Assembly (NCBI RefSeq): GCF_004803465.1
Contig: NZ_SRSF01000002.1
Coordinates: 372,001-436,000, forward strand
DNA: 64,000 nucleotides
Direction: 5' to 3'
Source of the DNA: Neolewinella litorea
Lineage (GTDB): Bacteria > Bacteroidota > Bacteroidia > Chitinophagales > Saprospiraceae
Shown here: positions 6,732-19,738 of the stretch, one piece after another
Numbering within the stretch: position 1 is the stretch's first letter
Layout: each line of letters starts with the position of its first letter
Translations under genes and position numbers: made by a program
The notes under the pieces: model-generated
The model's input: only the letters and a program-made list of their open reading frames with translations
What the model was told of the DNA's origin: nothing
The model's database searches: none

Positions 6732-7919
6732 TTAGAGGCGTAAGGGCAAATAGGGAAAACACTCCCCGGCGGCGAAGGTGTCGCGGTCGGCCGGCAGGAC
6801 GGCAAAGCCGTCGGTACGCAGCAGGCTCACGAGGTCGCCGCTGCCCCCGTTGCGGACCGGCTGCGCCCGCAGCTCTCCCGCCGCGGCAGTGACGGAAGCG
6901 GCGCGGAACAGCGTCAGGGGCGGGGTAAACTCGACCGCTTCGGTGAGTTTCACTTCCGCTCGGGGTTCCGGGACACCCAGACGGTGGCGCAGCCAGGGGC
7001 CTACGTAGGCCACCGCGCCAACCAGACTGGAAACGGGGTTACCGGGCAGCGCAAAGACCATCGTGCCGCTGGTCCGCCCCACCCAGAGGGGCTTGCCGGG
7101 CCGCTGGGCCACCCGGTGGAACAGGCACTCCACGCCGGCGGCGGCCAGCCACTCGGGCACGTGGTCGAGCTTACCCTTTGAGACCCCGCCGCTTAGGAGC
7201 AGGAGGTCGTGGTTTTTGAGGAGATCGCGCAGCGTGGCCCGGCCCCGATCGGGTGCGTCGGGCAGGTGACCCAGGGTGGGCTCGATGTTGACCGCGCGAA
7301 AAAGGCCCGCGAGCTGGTGGACGTTGGAACTGCGGATCTGGTGGTTCAGGGGCTGAGCGTCGACGTCGACCACCTCGTCACCCGTGGAGGCAATGGCTAC
7401 GCGGGGGCGCCGGCTCACCGCCACTTTCGCCACGCCGTAGGTAGCTAGCACGGCCATTTCCGCCGGACCGATCACCCGCCCCGGCTCCATCATCAACGCG
7501 CCGGAAAGAGCGTCGCTTCCACGCCGGTGAATGCTACGGCCGTCTTCCACACCGTCCGGTACGGTGAAGGTTTCGCCGTCCTTTTTCAGGTCCTCGTAGC
7601 GCACGACCGTAGTGGTTCCCGGGGGGAGCGGCGCGCCGGTCATGACCTCCACGCACTGCTTTGCATCCCGCAGGGGCTCAGGTGCGCGACCGGCGGGGGC
7701 CAGGTGGGAAACCGGGAAGCGGCGCTGCCCCGTGGCGTACGCGGCGAAGTCGAAAGCGATCCCGTCCATGGCCACGCGGTCGAAGGGCGGCTGGTCGCGG
7801 TCGGCGTAGACCTGCTGTCGGAGTACGCGCCCTCCGGCGCGCGCCAGGGCTACGCGTTCTACCCCCCAATCGAAGGATTGCTGCAGCACGAGGTCCAGAG
7901 CGGTGGAATAGTCGATCAT
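6732..7919 (-). CDS. moeA: Molybdopterin molybdotransferase MoeA
   Basis: MoeA inserts molybdate into adenylylated molybdopterin to form the molybdenum cofactor. The 395-residue length is normal. Visible family features are the N-terminal RDQPPFDRVAMDGIAFD segment, the MoaB-like domain with ASTGDEVVD and LLLLSGGVSKGKLDHVP, and ALPGNPVSSLVGAVAYV toward the C-terminus. It is 42 bp downstream of ubiD and 9 bp upstream of mobA on the same strand, which points to co-transcription. No molybdoenzyme is encoded in the window. Confidence 0.93.
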   Translation of the reverse strand: MIDYSTALDLVLQQSFDWGVERVALARAGGRVLRQQVYADRDQPPFDRVAMDGIAFDFAAYATGQRRFPVSHLAPAGRAPEPLRDAKQCVEVMTGAPLPPGTTTVVRYEDLKKDGETFTVPDGVEDGRSIHRRGSDALSGALMMEPGRVIGPAEMAVLATYGVAKVAVSRRPRVAIASTGDEVVDVDAQPLNHQIRSSNVHQLAGLFRAVNIEPTLGHLPDAPDRGRATLRDLLKNHDLLLLSGGVSKGKLDHVPEWLAAAGVECLFHRVAQRPGKPLWVGRTSGTMVFALPGNPVSSLVGAVAYVGPWLRHRLGVPEPRAEVKLTEAVEFTPPLTLFRAASVTAAAGELRAQPVRNGGSGDLVSLLRTDGFAVLPADRDTFAAGECFPYLPLRL

Positions 7920-10106: not shown

Positions 10107-10835
10107 ATGAGAACCCGCCGACGCATCAACCTGTGGTCATCGCCGCGTAATATTAGTACCGCCCTGATGTATGCCTTCGCCCAGCGCGGGGATACTACGG
10201 TGGTTGACGAGCCCCTTTACGCCCATTACCTCACCCACCAACCCACCGAGGCCCACCACCCCGGCCGGGAGGCGGTGCTCGCCGCGCAGGAGAACGACGG
10301 CGCGAAGGTGGTCGATACGCTGCGCGAGCACGACTACGGCACCGAGAACGTGGTCTTCAAGCAAATGACGCACCACCTGGTGAACCTGGAGCCGGACTTC
10401 CTCTACCCCATGACCAACGTGCTGCTCATCCGCGACCCCCACGAAATTCTGGCTTCCTTCGGCAAGGTGATCGAGCGGGGGGTGACCGCCGAAGACGTCG
10501 GCCTGCCCCAGCAGGGCGAACTGTTCAACCGCCTCACCGTCACCGGCAGCCTCTCGGCGGTGGTCGACGCCGGCCGCCTGCTCGACGATCCGGCCGGCGT
10601 GATCGAGCGGCTGTGCCGGCGACTGGACATCGACTACGACCCCGCCATGCTGCAGTGGGAAGCCGGTCCGAAGCCCTACGACGGCGTCTGGGCCGAGCAC
10701 TGGTACGCGGGTGTCCACCAAAGTACCGGCTTCGAGCCCCGCCCCCGGAAGGTGATCGAACTTTCACCCGCCCTCGCCGCCGTGGCCGACCAATGCTCCC
10801 CCATCTACCAGCGCCTGCTGAAACACGCCCTTTGA
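10107..10835 (+). CDS. Sulfotransferase-like P-loop protein
   Basis: The 242-residue protein starts with RRRINLWSSPRNISTALMYAF, the degenerate phosphosulfate-binding loop typical of a sulfotransferase-like family, and has LLIRDPHEILASF near residue 105 (the usual 3'-phosphate-binding RDP...S). The ATG at 10107 is chosen because the family begins right at this segment; the upstream ATG at 10083 adds an unlike 8 residues. It precedes a class IV aminotransferase by 10 bp on the same strand. In plants, proteins annotated 'branched-chain-amino-acid aminotransferase-like' carry both domains in one chain, so the pairing is likely functional. Substrate unknown. Confidence 0.75.
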   Translation: MRTRRRINLWSSPRNISTALMYAFAQRGDTTVVDEPLYAHYLTHQPTEAHHPGREAVLAAQENDGAKVVDTLREHDYGTENVVFKQMTHHLVNLEPDFLYPMTNVLLIRDPHEILASFGKVIERGVTAEDVGLPQQGELFNRLTVTGSLSAVVDAGRLLDDPAGVIERLCRRLDIDYDPAMLQWEAGPKPYDGVWAEHWYAGVHQSTGFEPRPRKVIELSPALAAVADQCSPIYQRLLKHAL

Positions 10836-10845
10836 AACCCCACCC

Positions 10846-11742
10846 ATGCTCCAAGGATTCAACCCCGCCAACGAAAATATCAAGGTTTACATCGACGGAC
10901 AGCTGCTGCCGCGCGCCGAGGCCAAGGTCAGCGTCTTCGACAGCAGCGTACAGGGCGGCGACGCCGTGTGGGAAGGCTTGCGGGTGTACGACGGACGGGT
11001 ATTCTGCCTCGACGCTCATCTCGACCGGCTTTTCGATTCGGCGCACGCGCTCTGGTTTCAGAACGTCCCCAGCCGGGAAACCGTAGTGGACGCCATCCGG
11101 CAAACCCTAGTCACCAACGACATGCACAACGACGTGCACATCCGCCTCACCCTTACCCGCGGCGAGAAGATCACCTCCGGCATGGACCCTCGCCTCAACC
11201 AGCGGGGCTGCACCCTCATTGTCCTGGCCGAGCACAAGCCTCCCGTGTACCCGGAATCGATCACCTTGGCCACGAGCTCGGTGCGCCGCAACAGTCCGAT
11301 GAGCGTAGACAGCAAGATCCACCACAATAACCTGATCAACAACATCATGGCCAAGATCGAAGCCAACCACGCGGGTGCCGACGCCGGCCTGATGCTTGAC
11401 AAGGACGGATTCGTGTCGGAAGCCAATGGCGTAAATGTCTTCCTGATCCGTCGCGGCAAGGTGCGTACCCCCTGGGCGGACTACTGTCTGCCGGGTATCA
11501 CCCGCGCTACCGTGCTGCAGCTCTGCCGCGACAATGGGATCCCCTGCGAGGAGGCGCGCCTCTCCCCCAGCGAATTTTACGTCGCCGATGAGGTATTTAC
11601 CACGGGCACGATGGGTGAGCTTACGCGCGTCCGCGCGATCGATGGCCGCGAGATCATCAACAAACATTCGGAATCGGTACTGGAGCGAGTGCAGGGGTTG
11701 TTCCGGGCACTTACCGAGAGCGGGGGTACGCGTTTGCTGTAG
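10846..11742 (+). CDS. Class IV aminotransferase (branched-chain/D-amino acid type)
   Basis: PLP-dependent fold-type IV transaminase of 298 residues. The N-terminus IKVYIDGQLLPRAEAKVSVFD, followed by GDAVWEGLRVYDGRVFCLDAHL, and the lysine K157 in VDSKIHHNNLINNIMAK, which should carry PLP, are diagnostic. VSEANGVNVFLI and FTTGTMGELTRV complete the cofactor site. It could be IlvE-like, a D-amino-acid aminotransferase or aminodeoxychorismate lyase-like. The partner sulfotransferase-like gene suggests a distinct, uncharacterised role rather than routine branched-chain amino acid synthesis. Confidence 0.85.
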   Translation: MLQGFNPANENIKVYIDGQLLPRAEAKVSVFDSSVQGGDAVWEGLRVYDGRVFCLDAHLDRLFDSAHALWFQNVPSRETVVDAIRQTLVTNDMHNDVHIRLTLTRGEKITSGMDPRLNQRGCTLIVLAEHKPPVYPESITLATSSVRRNSPMSVDSKIHHNNLINNIMAKIEANHAGADAGLMLDKDGFVSEANGVNVFLIRRGKVRTPWADYCLPGITRATVLQLCRDNGIPCEEARLSPSEFYVADEVFTTGTMGELTRVRAIDGREIINKHSESVLERVQGLFRALTESGGTRLL

Positions 11743-14581: not shown

Positions 14582-15385
14582 TTAACCCGCCGGAAGTTTG
14601 GTGCCCGCGGCGATGGGTACGGTCAGATCGTTTTCGGCCGGCGGGACGGGACAGGCGTAACCTTCCGTGTACGCGCAATAGGGATTGTACGCCTGGTTGA
14701 AATCCAGGATTACGGTGCCGGCGCGCGGGGCTTCCACGTTGAGGTACCGGCCGCCGCCGTAGGTGGTGGTGCCGGAGGTTGCGTCGCGAAAGGGCAGGAA
14801 CAAGCGTCCGGTGGCGGGGTCGTCGGCATCGCTGTTGCGGTAGAGGGTCAGCACCTGCGCGCCGCCGCCCAGCTCAAAGTACGCACGGCCGGAGACGGTG
14901 TAGGTGACGGAATCGGCGGCGCTGGTAGCCATGGTCAGACGGGTAAAGGAAGTGTCGGGCACGAAGCGCGCGGTGATGCGGAGGTCCTCATCCACCGGGT
15001 AGAAGGCGTGGCCCTCGCCCGCGGCAAAGGCCTCGCGTTCGGCCTCGGGCAGGGGGGAGGTGCTCGGACTGAGGTACTGCTCGTTGAGTCCCCAGCGGAA
15101 GGCCTTGATCTCCTGGGCGTAGGAGGTGTAACGGGTTTTGATCAGGCGGTCCTTGCCGTAGGTGCCGTCGGGATTCACCCAGATGTACTTGAATTCGTTG
15201 CCGTCGATCTCGTAGACGTTGACCACCAGGGGCGGGCCCAGGCGGATGGGGTTACCCTCGCGGTCGGTGATCGAATACTTGCTGTTGTTCAGCCACTCGA
15301 TGTCAAAGCGGAAGGTGGCGTCCCCGACCTGCTCGGTTTGGATTGATGGCCCAGCACAACGCGGTTTCCAACCGCGCCAGTACAA
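14582..15385 (-). CDS. DUF1684 domain protein, probably lacking its original 5' end
   Basis: Residues about 88-260 match DUF1684: YAQEIKAFRWGLNEQYL, SPLPEAEREAF, AFYPVDEDLRITARF, TYGGGRYLNVE, and the terminal GTVILDFNQAYNPYCAY...CPVPPAENDL. The preceding 85 residues are not recognised. The only upstream in-frame ATG (15385) lies inside the tandem hairpin array, and the first 14 codons are encoded by array sequence. No signal peptide is present although such proteins are usually exported. The natural start may have been removed when the array formed. The function of DUF1684 is unknown. Confidence 0.65.
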   Translation of the reverse strand: MYWRGWKPRCAGPSIQTEQVGDATFRFDIEWLNNSKYSITDREGNPIRLGPPLVVNVYEIDGNEFKYIWVNPDGTYGKDRLIKTRYTSYAQEIKAFRWGLNEQYLSPSTSPLPEAEREAFAAGEGHAFYPVDEDLRITARFVPDTSFTRLTMATSAADSVTYTVSGRAYFELGGGAQVLTLYRNSDADDPATGRLFLPFRDATSGTTTYGGGRYLNVEAPRAGTVILDFNQAYNPYCAYTEGYACPVPPAENDLTVPIAAGTKLPAG

Positions 15386-15533
15386 TGCGGCCTCAGGCCG
15401 CGCCAGTAAAACGCGGCCTCAGGCCGCGCAGGCAAAATGCGGTCTCGGACCGCGCCAGTTAAGACGCGGTTTCCAACCGCGCCAGTAGAACGCGGTCTCC
15501 GACCGCGCCAGCAGGATGCGGTCTCAGACCGCG
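15360..15533. repeat. Tandem array of seven 17-nt hairpins with covarying stems
   Basis: Hairpins start at 15360, 15386, 15412, 15438, 15465, 15491 and 15517, a 26-bp period (one step of 27). Each is a 7-bp stem with a 3-nt loop beginning TC, separated by a spacer close to CCAGTANAA. The two variable stem pairs change together: TT/AA in units 1 and 5, CC/GG in 2 and 3, TC/GA in 4, 6 and 7. The closing pair also varies between C-G and T-G. There are no unique spacers, so it is not a CRISPR. Confidence 0.92.
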
Positions 15534-15557
15534 CTAATAATTGATTATCTCAGTTAT

Positions 15558-15956
15558 CTATTCGTCTTTCCCAGGCAGCCGATCAGCCACCAAAAAAAGC
15601 ACGTAAAGATTGTACCCAGGAACGAGCAATACCAAAAGAGAGCGGCCGGTAGCGCGCATCCGATTAACGCATACCGTAGCGACCACGTAAATGTAGAGTA
15701 AAAATACCCACGGATAAATGTAGGGAGCGTAGGTGATCGGCGGGTGACCGAACAGGAGTCCGTCGCTAGGCCCTCTTCCCAAAGCTTCCCAAACAGCCAG
15801 CACCGTAGGCACCCCAAAGAACAGCAACACCGGCATAACGGCCAGCAACAGGGTAAAGGCGGAAAAATACGCGTGGCTGATGCACCGTCGGGGGTGGTAA
15901 AGATCCTGCAGGTAGATGCCGGGGGTCGGTGGAGTCTTACGTGGCATGTGGTTCAA
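15558..15956 (-). CDS. Small integral membrane protein (DUF805-like)
   Basis: The 132-residue protein has about three hydrophobic segments (near 33-52, 78-98 and 104-124). The end of the second loop, VNRMRATGRSLLVLLVPGYNLYVLF, resembles the R-R-x-x-x-x-G-x-S motif of DUF805 membrane proteins. The start could be the ATG at 15947 instead (second Met). The gene is isolated, upstream of the hairpin array on the same strand. Function unknown. Confidence 0.55.
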   Translation of the reverse strand: MNHMPRKTPPTPGIYLQDLYHPRRCISHAYFSAFTLLLAVMPVLLFFGVPTVLAVWEALGRGPSDGLLFGHPPITYAPYIYPWVFLLYIYVVATVCVNRMRATGRSLLVLLVPGYNLYVLFLVADRLPGKDE

Positions 15957-16267
15957 TGATACGCCCTTTCAGCATTCAGATTTTGTGGTGTAAGGCGGTG
16001 ACAGGGATTATTGCGGACGGTCCGGCTATGAGCACGAGCTGGCGCGCATCCGAGGCAAATTTGGCAGCTGCCTGCCTCCTTTAGTTCCACGTAGCTGTGG
16101 GGAGGGGGTAATTTTTTGCGGTATCCCGAAGATTTAACACCACTCCACCTGGGGTAGAGTGGTGGGTTGGATAATTGCGCTATGAATCAACGAGGAGCCA
16201 TGGCCCACCCCCCACGCGGGTGCGGGTATTAACGGCTTTCATCCTTAAAACAATCAAATTACAGTCT
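15957..16267. other. Upstream region of the peptide locus, with hairpins
   Basis: This 311-bp gap separates the divergent membrane protein gene and the first small peptide gene. CCACGTAGCTGTGG near 16087-16100 is followed after about 10 bases by TTTTTT, resembling a terminator. CACCACTC/GAGTGGTG (16138-16164, 11-nt loop) is a further stem. It may hold the promoter and leader of the peptide transcript. No additional gene is supported. Confidence 0.45.
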
Positions 16268-16441
16268 ATGCAACCCTTATCCTTTAAAGAAACTACTACC
16301 ATCGAAGGGGGAATACCCTGGCTTGTCGTATTCGGCGTCGGTATCATAGTCGCCGGATTTATCGACGGCTGCAACGATTCCCGCTACGAAACCACGGCCA
16401 AGGAAGAAGACCCGGCTACCGCTGCCACTCCTGAATGCTAA
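16268..16441 (+). CDS. Double-glycine leader peptide 1 (bacteriocin-like)
   Basis: A 57-residue precursor beginning MQPLSFKETTTIEGG, a classic double-glycine leader: Leu at -12, Glu at -8, Ile at -4 and Gly-Gly at the cleavage point. The predicted mature part starts with a hydrophobic, Gly-containing helix (IPWLVVFGVGIIVAGFIDG) and ends in a hydrophilic acidic tail with two Cys. This fits a secreted bacteriocin or signal peptide exported by a C39-peptidase ABC transporter. No such transporter lies in the window. The ATG at 16268 is chosen because the leader begins exactly there; the upstream in-frame start at 16175 has no leader logic. Confidence 0.7.
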   Translation: MQPLSFKETTTIEGGIPWLVVFGVGIIVAGFIDGCNDSRYETTAKEEDPATAATPEC

Positions 16442-16457
16442 CTTCAAATATCGCACC

Positions 16458-16622
16458 ATGAAAAGCTTACCTCCGCACGAAATCTCCACCATAACCGGCG
16501 GCGAAACGCCCTCCGCCGGAAGCTGGACCCCCTGGGGCCTGCTCTACGAAATCGGACGAGACCTCGGCCACCACTTCGGACACTGGTGGTACGGTAATGA
16601 AGAAGATCACGTCATCGATTAA
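16458..16622 (+). CDS. Double-glycine leader peptide 2 with GHHFGHWWYGN motif
   Basis: A 54-residue ORF 16 bp downstream of peptide 1. The leader MKSLPPHEISTITGG has the expected L, E, I and GG positions. The mature part (39 residues) contains Trp and His: TPWGLLYEIGRDLG, GHHFGHWWYGN, EEDHVID. The C-terminal part is shared with the third small ORF. Co-transcription with peptide 1 is likely, since a terminator follows only after this gene. Two adjacent leader peptides suggest a two-component secreted system. Function is inferred. Confidence 0.7.
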   Translation: MKSLPPHEISTITGGETPSAGSWTPWGLLYEIGRDLGHHFGHWWYGNEEDHVID

Positions 16623-16629
16623 GTATATT

Positions 16630-16662
16630 GCACGTCCTCTTTCGGGGACGTGCTATTTTTTC
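16630..16662 (+). terminator. Rho-independent terminator after peptide 2
   Basis: GCACGTCC (16630-16637) and GGACGTGC (16646-16653) form an 8-bp stem with an 8-nt loop, followed by TATTTTTTC. It starts 8 nt after the peptide 2 stop and separates the third ORF into its own or a read-through transcript. Confidence 0.85.
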
Positions 16663-16680
16663 ACATGAACCAAAGGAACA

Positions 16681-16827
16681 ATGAATCTGGATTCACCTAA
16701 AGATATCATGAAGATTATTCTACTCATCCTCCTGCTGGGAGTCGTCGGCAATCTGCTCTACCACTACAGTGGGGTGATCGGCCACGAGTTTGGCCACTGG
16801 TTTTATGGGAATGGGGGGGATCATTGA
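16681..16827 (+). CDS. Membrane-anchored small protein sharing the GHxFGHW motif
   Basis: A 48-residue ORF preceded by AAAGGAAC as a possible ribosome site. In place of a double-glycine leader it has a hydrophobic membrane segment (about residues 10-27, IMKIILLILLLGVVGNLL). Its last 20 residues match peptide 2: both contain LLY, five residues, then GH-x-FGHW-[WF]-YGN-xx-DH. It may be an immunity protein, a membrane decoy or a non-secreted paralogue. GHEFGH also fits the HExxH zinc motif, but at 48 residues it cannot be an ordinary metallopeptidase. Confidence 0.6.
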   Translation: MNLDSPKDIMKIILLILLLGVVGNLLYHYSGVIGHEFGHWFYGNGGDH

Positions 16828-17198: not shown

Positions 17199-17528
17199 AT
17201 GACTGAAACCCAAAGGCTCATACGGCTGCTACTTAATTTTCGAGACGACAGAGACTGGGACCAATTCCATAATGCTAAAGACCTCGCCGTTGCACTTAAC
17301 ATCGAGTCGGCAGAATTATTGGAACTGTTCCTTTGGAAAAATCCCGAGGAAGCTGATAAGAAGAGAGTAGCAGAAGAGCTCGCCGATGTGCTCGCGTACG
17401 CCCTGCTAATTGCTGAAAAGTATGGACTCGATGTTTCGGAAATTGTCACTGAAAAGGTCAAACGCAATGGAGAGAAATATCCAGTAAATAAGGCTAGGGG
17501 ATCGGCCAAGAAGTACGACGAACTATGA
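17199..17528 (+). CDS. MazG-like nucleotide pyrophosphohydrolase
   Basis: A 109-residue all-alpha NTP pyrophosphatase. The helices carry the metal-binding acid pattern: ESAELLELFLW and then EELADVLAYALLIAEKYG (ExxE ... ExxD). WDQFHNAKDLAVALNIESAELLE is typical of the MazG/dCTPase-type small members, which hydrolyse non-canonical or excess nucleoside triphosphates. The ATG at 17199 gives the standard N-terminus; longer in-frame starts add unrelated residues. Its stop overlaps the next ATG (ATGA at 17525-17528), so the two genes are translationally coupled. Confidence 0.85.
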   Translation: MTETQRLIRLLLNFRDDRDWDQFHNAKDLAVALNIESAELLELFLWKNPEEADKKRVAEELADVLAYALLIAEKYGLDVSEIVTEKVKRNGEKYPVNKARGSAKKYDEL

Positions 17529-19738
17529 CGCTGCCTTATTCCTTTGATATTGCCCAATACGATTTCACCACTTCGATCCGTGAGGAGTTATTATCAAAGA
17601 GAGAAGCGAATGACTTGTGGCCACTTGTTTACATTTTGAGCAATGGACACAGAAAACAGGCATATGTAGGTGAAACCGCTGACGTATTGTCACGTTTGGA
17701 TGCCCACCAAAAGCACGAAAAAAAGCAGAAATTAACGACGGTCCACCTGATTTCAAGTAGCTTTTTTAACAAGTCGGCCACCCTGGATATAGAGTCAAAT
17801 CTTATTCAATATATGGCTGCTGACGGGCAGTTTGAATTAATGAATGCAAACCTTGGGATTGCTAACCATACTTACTATCAAAAGCAGGCATATTGGGGGG
17901 TATTCACGTCAATATGGGACAATCTGCAAGGTTTCGGCTTGGCCAAGCACTCTTTGGACCATATTGACAACTCCGACTTGTTCAAGTACTCTCCGTACAA
18001 GTCTCTATCCCGGGAACAGAACGCTGGACTGGTCAAAATTCTGCGATCACTGGCATTTGATGATGGCAGAAATATCGTCATCCAGGGCGGGGCGGGAACA
18101 GGTAAAACGATTTTGGCCATTTTCCTCTTCAAACTGCTAAACTCCTCTTTGCAGGACTTAAACTTCAAGGAGTTCGGGGAGCAAGAAGCTGAAATCGGCG
18201 ATCTGGTTGATCTTATTAAATCGCACTATGGTGACCTCAGCATGGGGCTCGTTGTTCCCATGTCATCGTTTCGAAAAACCCTGCAGAACATCTTCTCTGG
18301 TGTCGGCGGCTTAAGCCCTAACATGGTGATTGGTCCCGCCGACGTCGCAAATCGCCGGTACGATTTACTGATTGTAGATGAAGCCCACCGGTTACGGCAG
18401 CGGGTAAACCTGGGAGCTTATTTTCGAAGCTTCGATAAGGCAAGCGAAAAGCTGGGTCTGGACAAGATGAAGCACACCGAGCTTGACTGGATATTGCAGC
18501 AGTCTGACCGGGCCTTATTCTTCTACGATACTGATCAATCTATCAAGCCTTCAGACGTCAGCTCAGCAGCATTTGAATCCCTCAAGAGGAATCCGGCAAC
18601 CAAAATTCACTCACTGCAATCGCAATTCCGGGCACAGGGGGGAAATGATTATGTGGCATTCATTGATGGTCTGTTACAGCAGCAGCTACCCGACGACTAT
18701 CCAAAGTTCCTCCACAAAAATTACGAATTGAAGCTCTTCGATTCATTGGCGGATATGGTTGCCAAAATCAAAGACAAGAATGAGGACCACGGACTTTCCC
18801 GGTTGATTGCCGGATACAGTTGGCCATGGCTATCCAAAAGCCCCAAGAACAAGAAATATCAGCCACACGATATTGAAGAGGATGGTTTACGCCTGCGGTG
18901 GAATTCTACAAACATCGACTGGATCAATACTCCACATTCCATTGAGGAGGTAGGATGCATTCATACCACCCAGGGATACGACCTCAACTTTACCGGTATT
19001 ATTTTCGGGAAAGAAGTTGGTTTCGATCCGGAAACCCAGAAGATCGTTGTTCGCGCAGAACACTACCACGATCGTAATGGAAAAGCAACGATCAAATGTC
19101 CCGAGAGGCTTAAGGGTTACATTCTTAACATCTACAAAACCATCCTGCTTCGCGGCATCCGGGGCACTTACATTTATGTCTGCGACCCTGCTTTGCGGGA
19201 ATACATGTCCAGGTACATTCCGTTGGCTACGTCCGAAGCCCCCGTTGAAAAAACCATTCATCCCCTTCCTGCTCATCAGGTTGTCCCATTTGAAAACAGT
19301 GTTCCCCTGTATAGCATGCAAGCCGCCGCGGGAGGATTCGGTCTGGTTGAAGTAGTTGAGAAGGAAGACTGGATCACTGTGCCCACCCGATATGCCCTGG
19401 ACTCCGACTGTTTTGCCTGCCGGGTGGTGGGTGAATCTATGAATCGGGTCATCCCGAATGGCAGCGTTTGTTTATTTCGCCGGTATAAAGGTGGATCCCG
19501 GAGCGGAAAAATCTTTCTGGTTGAACTGAATGCCTTTACAGACGCGGAGGCGGGATCTGCCTATACGGTCAAGGAATACCGGAGTGAAAAGAACCTGAAC
19601 GACGAGAACTGGCAGCACCGCAAGATTTCACTCCATCCCCGTTCGCATGACCCCTCCTTTCAACCTCTTGAATTAAACGAGGAATCTGCCTCTGAAATGC
19701 GGGTCATTGGGGAGTTTATTGCCGTGTTGGGGAAGTGA
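17525..19738 (+). CDS. GIY-YIG / DUF2075 helicase / S24 peptidase fusion, probable defence protein
   Basis: A 737-residue multidomain protein. (1) A GIY-YIG nuclease-like domain at about 33-100 (VYILSN at 35-40, AYVGE at 46-50, R57). (2) A DUF2075 (Schlafen-type) P-loop ATPase/helicase at about 165-560, with Walker A GGAGTGKT at 188-195, Walker B IVDEAH at 283-288, a QSQFRAQGG motif and HTTQGYDLNFTGI. (3) A C-terminal LexA/UmuD-type S24 domain with VVGESM (Ser638) and a candidate Lys683 in TVKEY. Nuclease, ATPase and self-cleaving regulatory domain in one chain, coupled to a MazG enzyme and in AT-rich foreign-looking DNA, suggests an antiphage or stress-triggered system. Domain calls are by motif; the biological role is inference. 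Confidence 0.85.
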   Translation: MTLPYSFDIAQYDFTTSIREELLSKREANDLWPLVYILSNGHRKQAYVGETADVLSRLDAHQKHEKKQKLTTVHLISSSFFNKSATLDIESNLIQYMAADGQFELMNANLGIANHTYYQKQAYWGVFTSIWDNLQGFGLAKHSLDHIDNSDLFKYSPYKSLSREQNAGLVKILRSLAFDDGRNIVIQGGAGTGKTILAIFLFKLLNSSLQDLNFKEFGEQEAEIGDLVDLIKSHYGDLSMGLVVPMSSFRKTLQNIFSGVGGLSPNMVIGPADVANRRYDLLIVDEAHRLRQRVNLGAYFRSFDKASEKLGLDKMKHTELDWILQQSDRALFFYDTDQSIKPSDVSSAAFESLKRNPATKIHSLQSQFRAQGGNDYVAFIDGLLQQQLPDDYPKFLHKNYELKLFDSLADMVAKIKDKNEDHGLSRLIAGYSWPWLSKSPKNKKYQPHDIEEDGLRLRWNSTNIDWINTPHSIEEVGCIHTTQGYDLNFTGIIFGKEVGFDPETQKIVVRAEHYHDRNGKATIKCPERLKGYILNIYKTILLRGIRGTYIYVCDPALREYMSRYIPLATSEAPVEKTIHPLPAHQVVPFENSVPLYSMQAAAGGFGLVEVVEKEDWITVPTRYALDSDCFACRVVGESMNRVIPNGSVCLFRRYKGGSRSGKIFLVELNAFTDAEAGSAYTVKEYRSEKNLNDENWQHRKISLHPRSHDPSFQPLELNEESASEMRVIGEFIAVLGK

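What the first reader, a model, noticed from the sequence alone, without database searches (positions are those of the whole stretch)
16268..16827. Three-peptide locus: two double-glycine precursors plus a membrane-anchored paralogue
Two tiny ORFs carry textbook double-glycine leaders (MQPLSFKETTTIEGG and MKSLPPHEISTITGG). A third, after a terminator, shares the C-terminal part of peptide 2 (LLY, then GHxFGHW[WF]YGN and DH) but has a membrane helix instead of a leader. A secreted peptide and its membrane-bound look-alike side by side suggest a toxin/immunity or signal/receptor relation. I know no described bacteriocin with a GHxFGHWxYGN motif.
Basis: partly seen in the sequence, partly recalled or inferred. 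Interest (0 to 1): 0.86.

Follow-up and report, generated by a model that had tools for sequence, protein, structure and literature searches.

The report
Bacteriocin-like peptides with membrane-anchored look-alike
A Lewinella-type bacterium carries two small exported peptides, probably a weapon against neighbours, next to a tiny membrane peptide that resembles the tail of one of them and probably protects the cell from it.

Summary
pep1 (16268-16441) and pep2 (16458-16622) have 15-residue double-glycine leaders; pep3 (16681-16827) is a one-helix membrane peptide behind a terminator. All three are conserved in Lewinella sp. JB7 (G004), dN/dS about 0.11. The pep2-pep3 likeness is not chance. A C39-ABC exporter with HlyD partner lies on another contig; both places carry the same palindromic promoter-like element, found in 7 of 21 genomes of the genus and never by the reversed-pattern control.

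Best reading: a two-peptide, class II microcin-like bacteriocin whose immunity peptide holds a copy of the toxin's C-terminal glycine-zipper helix in the periplasm. For: pep3 relatives adjoin CPBP (Abi-type) genes at 3 of 6 loci; G016 has the palindrome and pep3 without pep1 or pep2. Against: 3 of 5 genomes with pep3 show no recognisable pep2; both mature peptides are acidic; neighbouring pep2-pep3 pairs do not match each other best. Killing, processing and immunity are untested.

No strong pep3 match outside the genus (398 family and 395 class genomes searched). Pfam, NCBIfam, PADLOC and the PDB gave no family or relative; plasmids (pep2) and viral contigs (pep3) gave none. New variant of a known kind; toxin-mimic immunity would be unusual if shown.

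The parts
16133..16161 (+). Palindromic promoter-like element TTTAACACCACTCCAC-N5-GTAGAGTG
   Evidence: 13 sites in G000, 43 in five genomes at up to 3 mismatches, reversed control 0; 7 of 21 genus genomes with a wider pattern, control 0; conserved in G004
16172..16183 (+). TAATTGCGCTAT, possible -7 region (inferred; resembles the Bacteroidetes -7 box as recalled)
   Evidence: position read from the sequence; a TTGC-type box recurs behind many palindrome sites
16268..16441 (+). pep1, 57 aa double-glycine precursor; predicted mature peptide 42 aa, net charge -5, two Cys
16458..16622 (+). pep2, 54 aa double-glycine precursor; predicted mature peptide 39 aa, net charge -6, no Cys, GRDLGHHFG glycine zipper then HWWYGN
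   Evidence: AlphaFold2 helix 25-52, pLDDT 65
16630..16661 (+). Intrinsic terminator between pep2 and pep3
   Evidence: stem also present in G004
16681..16827 (+). pep3, 48 aa, one membrane helix (9-27) followed by a helix like the C-terminus of pep2; proposed immunity peptide
   Evidence: AlphaFold2 helix 6-43, pLDDT 81
15558..15956 (-). 132-aa membrane-type protein transcribed away from pep1; rival immunity candidate
   Evidence: 64% identical homologue in G004; 3 hydrophobic windows; no Pfam family over its cut-off

Best explanation
pep1 and pep2 are the two precursors of an unmodified, two-peptide, class II microcin-like bacteriocin. They are transcribed from a palindrome-marked promoter, cleaved after GG and exported by the C39-ABC transporter and HlyD protein coded on another contig (inferred). 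The mature peptides pair through glycine-zipper helices at a neighbour's inner membrane (inferred). pep3 is the immunity peptide: it is anchored N-in, C-out in the producer's inner membrane and holds a copy of pep2's C-terminal helix in the periplasm, where it pairs with pep1 or occupies pep2's site so that no toxic complex forms (inferred). Shown: the genes and their conservation, the non-chance likeness of pep2 and pep3, the exporter genes, the shared element. Not shown: killing, processing, immunity.
For: All three genes conserved in G004, dN/dS about 0.11, pep3 C-terminal 22 residues 0.029. pep1+pep2 pair kept at three loci in two genomes. Leaders of exactly 15 residues in 23 of 31 linked precursors, taking the Met nearest the GG. 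C39-ABC with HlyD, further precursors and two CPBP proteins at G000:C1. Palindrome at both places. Precursor sets are followed by a membrane-type gene in 11 of 11 linked loci read. pep3 relatives adjoin PF02517 (CPBP) genes at L034, L036 and L038, 3 of 6 loci. G016 has palindrome plus pep3 without pep1/pep2 at the same chromosomal place. pep2 of G000 and G004 match the pep3 profile at E = 3e-10. N side of the pep3 helix is more positive than the C side in 6 of 6.
Against: G016, G017 and G020 (3 of 5 genomes with pep3) have no detectable pep2. Neighbouring pep2-pep3 pairs do not match best: the G004:C23 pep3 scores 54 with its own pep2-like peptide but 82 with the C30 one. Mature peptides are acidic, -5 and -6. 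In the window the charge bias across the pep3 helix is only one charge. pep3 (48 aa) is just under the 51-216 aa range of confirmed microcin immunity proteins (PMC9746304 passages). The 132-aa membrane gene is another candidate. No genome-wide background was measured for membrane genes downstream. No activity data.
Confidence: 0.52

Rival explanations
1. pep1 and pep2 are bacteriocins, but pep3 is not their immunity peptide: it assists CPBP proteins or another membrane process, and pep2 took over its C-terminal helix. Immunity comes from another gene, such as the 132-aa membrane protein at 15558-15956 or the CPBP proteins of the exporter locus.
For: pep3 is wider spread than pep2 (5 genomes against 2); it adjoins CPBP genes at 3 of 6 loci; the 132-aa gene is conserved in G004.
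Against: No CPBP gene stands beside pep3 in the window, in G004:C30 or in G016; the 132-aa gene is on the opposite strand and no ORF for it appears between nitrilase and pep3 in G016.
Confidence: 0.17
2. pep1/pep2 are signals (pheromones) and pep3 is a membrane partner, decoy or brake that reads or quenches pep2.
For: Shared helix in the two peptides; a palindrome shared by exporter locus and satellite operon suggests a regulated system.
Against: I saw no histidine kinase or response regulator at the loci read, and the MarR-like gene of the exporter locus does not follow the palindrome: it is missing in G009, which has the palindrome, and present in G001, G002, G007, G013 and G014, which lack it. 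pep3 has no cytoplasmic domain.
Confidence: 0.12
3. pep3 is a third effector: a tethered or leaderless pore-forming peptide, or part of the toxic complex.
For: It carries the same helix as pep2.
Against: No leader; separated by a terminator; occurs without pep1/pep2 in G016; adjoins immunity-type genes elsewhere.
Confidence: 0.1
4. pep3 is a mini zinc protease (HEFGH).
For: The window copy reads HEFGH; Pfam M48 touches it at E = 0.32, below its cut-off.
Against: The glutamate is not conserved: GHEFGH in 3 of 6, GHHFGH in 2, GHAFGH in 1.
Confidence: 0.01

Closest known systems
Class II microcins (microcin V type)
   Same: Small unmodified precursor with double-glycine leader, C39 ABC exporter, membrane fusion protein, outer-membrane efflux protein in the genome, small membrane immunity candidate next door (definition from PMC9746304 passages).
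   Different: Two precursors in tandem; exporter on another contig; a 48-aa immunity candidate that resembles its toxin. The passages read say confirmed immunity proteins show little or no similarity to each other; they do not describe toxin-like ones. Bacteroidota-type host, not Enterobacterales.
Class IIb (two-peptide) bacteriocins
   Same: Two neighbouring precursors; GxxxG motifs; Abi/CPBP proteins as known or suspected immunity proteins in the class (PMC6957408 passages).
   Different: Acidic peptides in a Gram-negative; need for both peptides untested.
Bacteroidetocins
   Same: Bacteroidota producers, 15-residue double-glycine leader, about 42-residue mature peptide (PMC6671954, section 8).
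   Different: Four Cys and a thiol oxidoreductase gene there; pep2 has no Cys and pep1 two; no obvious immunity protein there (passages).
PepI, the Pep5 immunity peptide
   Same: Very small protein with apolar N-terminus and an outer C-terminal part needed for immunity (PMC8538875 passages).
   Different: Lantibiotic of a Gram-positive; basic C-terminus; likeness to its toxin is not mentioned in the passages read.

Membership tests
Class II microcins | Precursor with double-glycine leader | tested here: met
   pep1 and pep2, GG at residues 14-15
Class II microcins | C39-peptidase ABC transporter and membrane fusion protein in the genome | tested here: met
   L039 11712-13889 (PF03412 2e-32) and 10550-11707 (PF13437 9.2e-18)
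Class II microcins | TolC-type outer-membrane protein | tested here: met
   15 PF02321 matches in G000; which one would serve is unknown
Class II microcins | Cognate immunity protein | tested here: inconclusive
   pep3 by place and membrane helix only
Class II microcins | Antibacterial activity | not testable with these tools
   needs an assay
Class IIb two-peptide bacteriocins | Two adjacent precursors kept together | tested here: met
   three loci in two genomes
Class IIb two-peptide bacteriocins | GxxxG motifs in both mature peptides | tested here: inconclusive
   pep2 has GRDLGHHFG, read by eye; pep1 has several Gly (FGVGIIVAGFIDG) but no strict GxxxG
Class IIb two-peptide bacteriocins | Both peptides needed for activity | not testable with these tools
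   needs an assay
Bacteroidetocins | Four Cys in the mature peptide | tested here: not met
   pep1 two, pep2 none, against PMC6671954 section 8
Class IIa (pediocin-like) bacteriocins | N-terminal YGNGVxC | tested here: not met
   pep2 has WYGNEED near its C-terminus and no Cys
Named Pfam, NCBIfam or PADLOC peptide families | Profile match over cut-off | tested here: not met
   pep1 and pep2 no match; pep3 only DUF2633 (E 0.061) and M48 (E 0.32), both under cut-off in Pfam, none in NCBIfam or PADLOC
Zinc metallopeptidases | Conserved HExxH | tested here: not met
   Glu in 3 of 6 relatives only

The most novel reading that the evidence does not exclude
Immunity by tethered mimicry: the producer displays a membrane-anchored copy of its own toxin's glycine-zipper helix in the periplasm, which pairs with the partner peptide and poisons assembly of the toxic complex. 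The H-xxx-H of pep3 (H35 and H39, invariant in 6 of 6) could add a metal-dependent clasp. Copies without pep2 in relatives would be protection against neighbours' peptides.
Probability: 0.25. Interest if true: 0.8.

Novelty: new variant of a known kind. Interest (0 to 1): 0.56.

Why it matters
How immunity proteins of two-peptide bacteriocins work was still called a mystery in a 2019 paper (PMC6957408, passages seen). A 48-residue immunity peptide that copies part of its toxin would be small enough to test by synthesis and mutation, and would make dominant-negative immunity a concrete hypothesis. It would also put peptide weapons, and a control element that marks them, on record for Lewinella and kin; my searches of the held papers for Lewinella or Saprospiraceae with bacteriocin listed no paper on that subject by title.

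Tried and rejected
Zinc-protease reading of HEFGH: rejected, the Glu varies. Bacteroidetocin and pediocin-like membership: rejected on Cys and on the place of YGN. Relatives: pep2 in plasmids none; pep3 in viral contigs none confirmed (11 stretches matched the pattern); PDB none; pep2 in genome contigs one, L003. MarR-like gene of the exporter locus as reader of the palindrome: not supported, presence does not match. pep3 matches at E 0.001-0.01 in 11 further family genomes were set aside as probable ordinary membrane segments and not read one by one; a second, short G020 match at E 4.7e-4 (C34:1097811) lies in a 28-aa open frame and looks like a remnant. Cognate matching of pep2-pep3 pairs: not seen. 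In the leader count, 34 rows were printed; I dropped 3 by eye (L038:4465 inside a CPBP gene, L106:4881, L125:977), leaving 31. Structure models show helices only, from two-sequence alignments; no fold search was run. Papers: PMC6671954 outline, section 8 and passages; PMC6957408, PMC9746304 and PMC8538875 passages; the others as search listings with the start of the abstract.

Full report
What is there. The window lies in a 4.40-Mb genome of 39 contigs. pep1 and pep2 have 15-residue leaders ending in GG. pep3 has no leader but one hydrophobic segment at residues 9-27. A strong terminator stands between pep2 and pep3.

They behave as genes. All three are in G004 in the same order. Nei-Gojobori dN/dS between the two genomes is 0.106 for pep1, 0.107 for pep2 (mature part 0.052) and 0.108 for pep3 (C-terminal 22 residues 0.029, first 26 residues 0.184). 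The genes are short and this is one pair of genomes, so the values are rough, but synonymous changes prevail.

pep1 and pep2 form a pair. A second locus in G004 (C23, L034) has a pep1 relative (E 3.1e-5) beside a pep2 relative (E 1.3e-9), at L034:6680-6859 and 6878-7039. So the pair is kept at three loci in two genomes. In the other 19 of 21 genus genomes pep1 had no match better than E 0.03.

pep3 is a family of its own. A profile of six relatives gave E below 1e-20 at six loci in 5 of 398 family genomes, all in the window's genus; in 395 class genomes it reached E 1e-4 in 2, G000 and G017, both of that genus. Invariant in 6 of 6 are M1, Y27, G34, H35, F37, G38, H39, Y42, H48; the Glu of HEFGH is not. 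Net charge before the helix is -1, 0, +2, +3, +1, +2 and after it -2, -3, -2, -1, 0, -2: the N side is the more positive in 6 of 6, by one charge only in the window. AlphaFold2 gives pep3 as one helix 6-43 (pLDDT 81) and pep2 as a helix 25-52 (pLDDT 65), each from two sequences.

pep2 carries the pep3 helix. pep2 of G000 and G004 match the pep3 profile at E 3e-10, and the pep2-pep3 alignment beats 2000 of 2000 shuffles. pep3 is found in five genomes and a recognisable pep2 in two, so pep2 may have taken its helix from a pep3-type ancestor rather than the reverse (inference).

Exporter and shared element. Two C39 domains exist in the genome. One belongs to a 725-aa C39-ABC protein, after a 385-aa HlyD protein and before a 110-aa weakly MarR-like protein, with further double-glycine precursors and two CPBP proteins downstream. 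Upstream of pep1 is the palindromic element TTTAACACCACTCCAC-CTGGG-GTAGAGTG (16133-16161). With up to 3 mismatches it occurs 13 times in G000 and 43 times in five genomes, the reversed pattern 0 times. A shorter search in G000 gave 12 sites against 1 control. With a wider pattern it is in 7 of 21 genus genomes, control 0 in all 21. The patterns were built from these sequences, so the counts are not independent of the choice. Three sites lie at the exporter locus and one before another precursor pair on C37. Of 31 precursors in 11 linked loci of seven genomes, 23 have a leader of exactly 15 residues.

Why immunity. In 11 of 11 linked loci read, the precursors are followed by a membrane-type gene: one-helix peptides (window, L035, L034), small hydrophobic proteins (L036, L106/L046, L125, L121) or PF02517 CPBP proteins (L038, L039, L108, L109). 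No background rate was measured. pep3 relatives adjoin CPBP genes at L034, L036 and L038. In G016, between the same nitrilase and PAP2 genes as in the window, I find only the palindrome and pep3; whether pep1 and pep2 were lost there or never arrived is open. Immunity genes kept without their toxin are a familiar pattern (general knowledge).

What speaks against. G016, G017 and G020 have pep3 relatives without a detectable pep2. Neighbouring pep2-pep3 pairs do not match each other best. Both mature peptides are acidic (-5, -6). pep1 has no strict GxxxG. The 132-aa membrane protein at 15558-15956, 64% identical in G004, is a rival immunity candidate.

Placement. It works like a class II microcin or class IIb bacteriocin system and meets the precursor and exporter features, but activity and immunity are untested. 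It is not a bacteroidetocin and not pediocin-like. No Pfam, NCBIfam or PADLOC family passed for pep1-pep3. I call it a new variant of a known kind. The mimic feature would be what is new; my searches for such an immunity listed no paper whose title describes one. That is a weak negative: only open papers are held and I read few.

Noticed in passing
Palindrome sites; in the window 16133-16161: The palindrome also precedes, in several genomes, genes for PF13366 GxxExxY-type proteins (L118 tested, E 5.7e-42), a secreted lamin-tail-domain protein (L105:905-2782, PF00932 E 2.2e-18) and a protein of about 200 aa with a MPNHFHLL-type motif that recalls Y1/RAYT transposases (recalled; Pfam found nothing for two of them). 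It may mark a genus-level regulon that joins peptide weapons with nuclease-like genes.
   Followed up: partly
Palindrome half-sites in G000/G004 against G020: The half-site differs between genomes on both arms: ACTCCAC/GTRGAGT in most G000 and G004 sites, AGTCCAC/GTRGACT in G020. This fits a binding site that drifts with its protein; the reader of the site is not identified.
   Followed up: partly
L038:2553-3130 (G020): Six copies of the palindrome at about 110-base steps in front of one precursor set.
   Followed up: no
window 17199-19738: A MazG-like protein (PF12643, E 3e-20) overlapping a Schlafen-group-3 helicase with GIY-YIG and S24 parts (PF09848, E 2.3e-65); weak PADLOC matches to AbiO, Nhi and PDC-S14. 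Possible defence pair in a cargo site: G004 has HsdS/HsdR-like genes there by eye, G016 only pep3.
   Followed up: partly
L034:7088-7204, L038:2350-2478, L039:14893-15069: Further one-helix peptides with a C-terminal LGxxF stretch at the exporter loci, too far from pep3 to be found by its profile; they may be sister immunity peptides.
   Followed up: partly
window 15360-15540: A run of short repeats with the theme aacgcggtctcnnaccgcgccagt.
   Followed up: no
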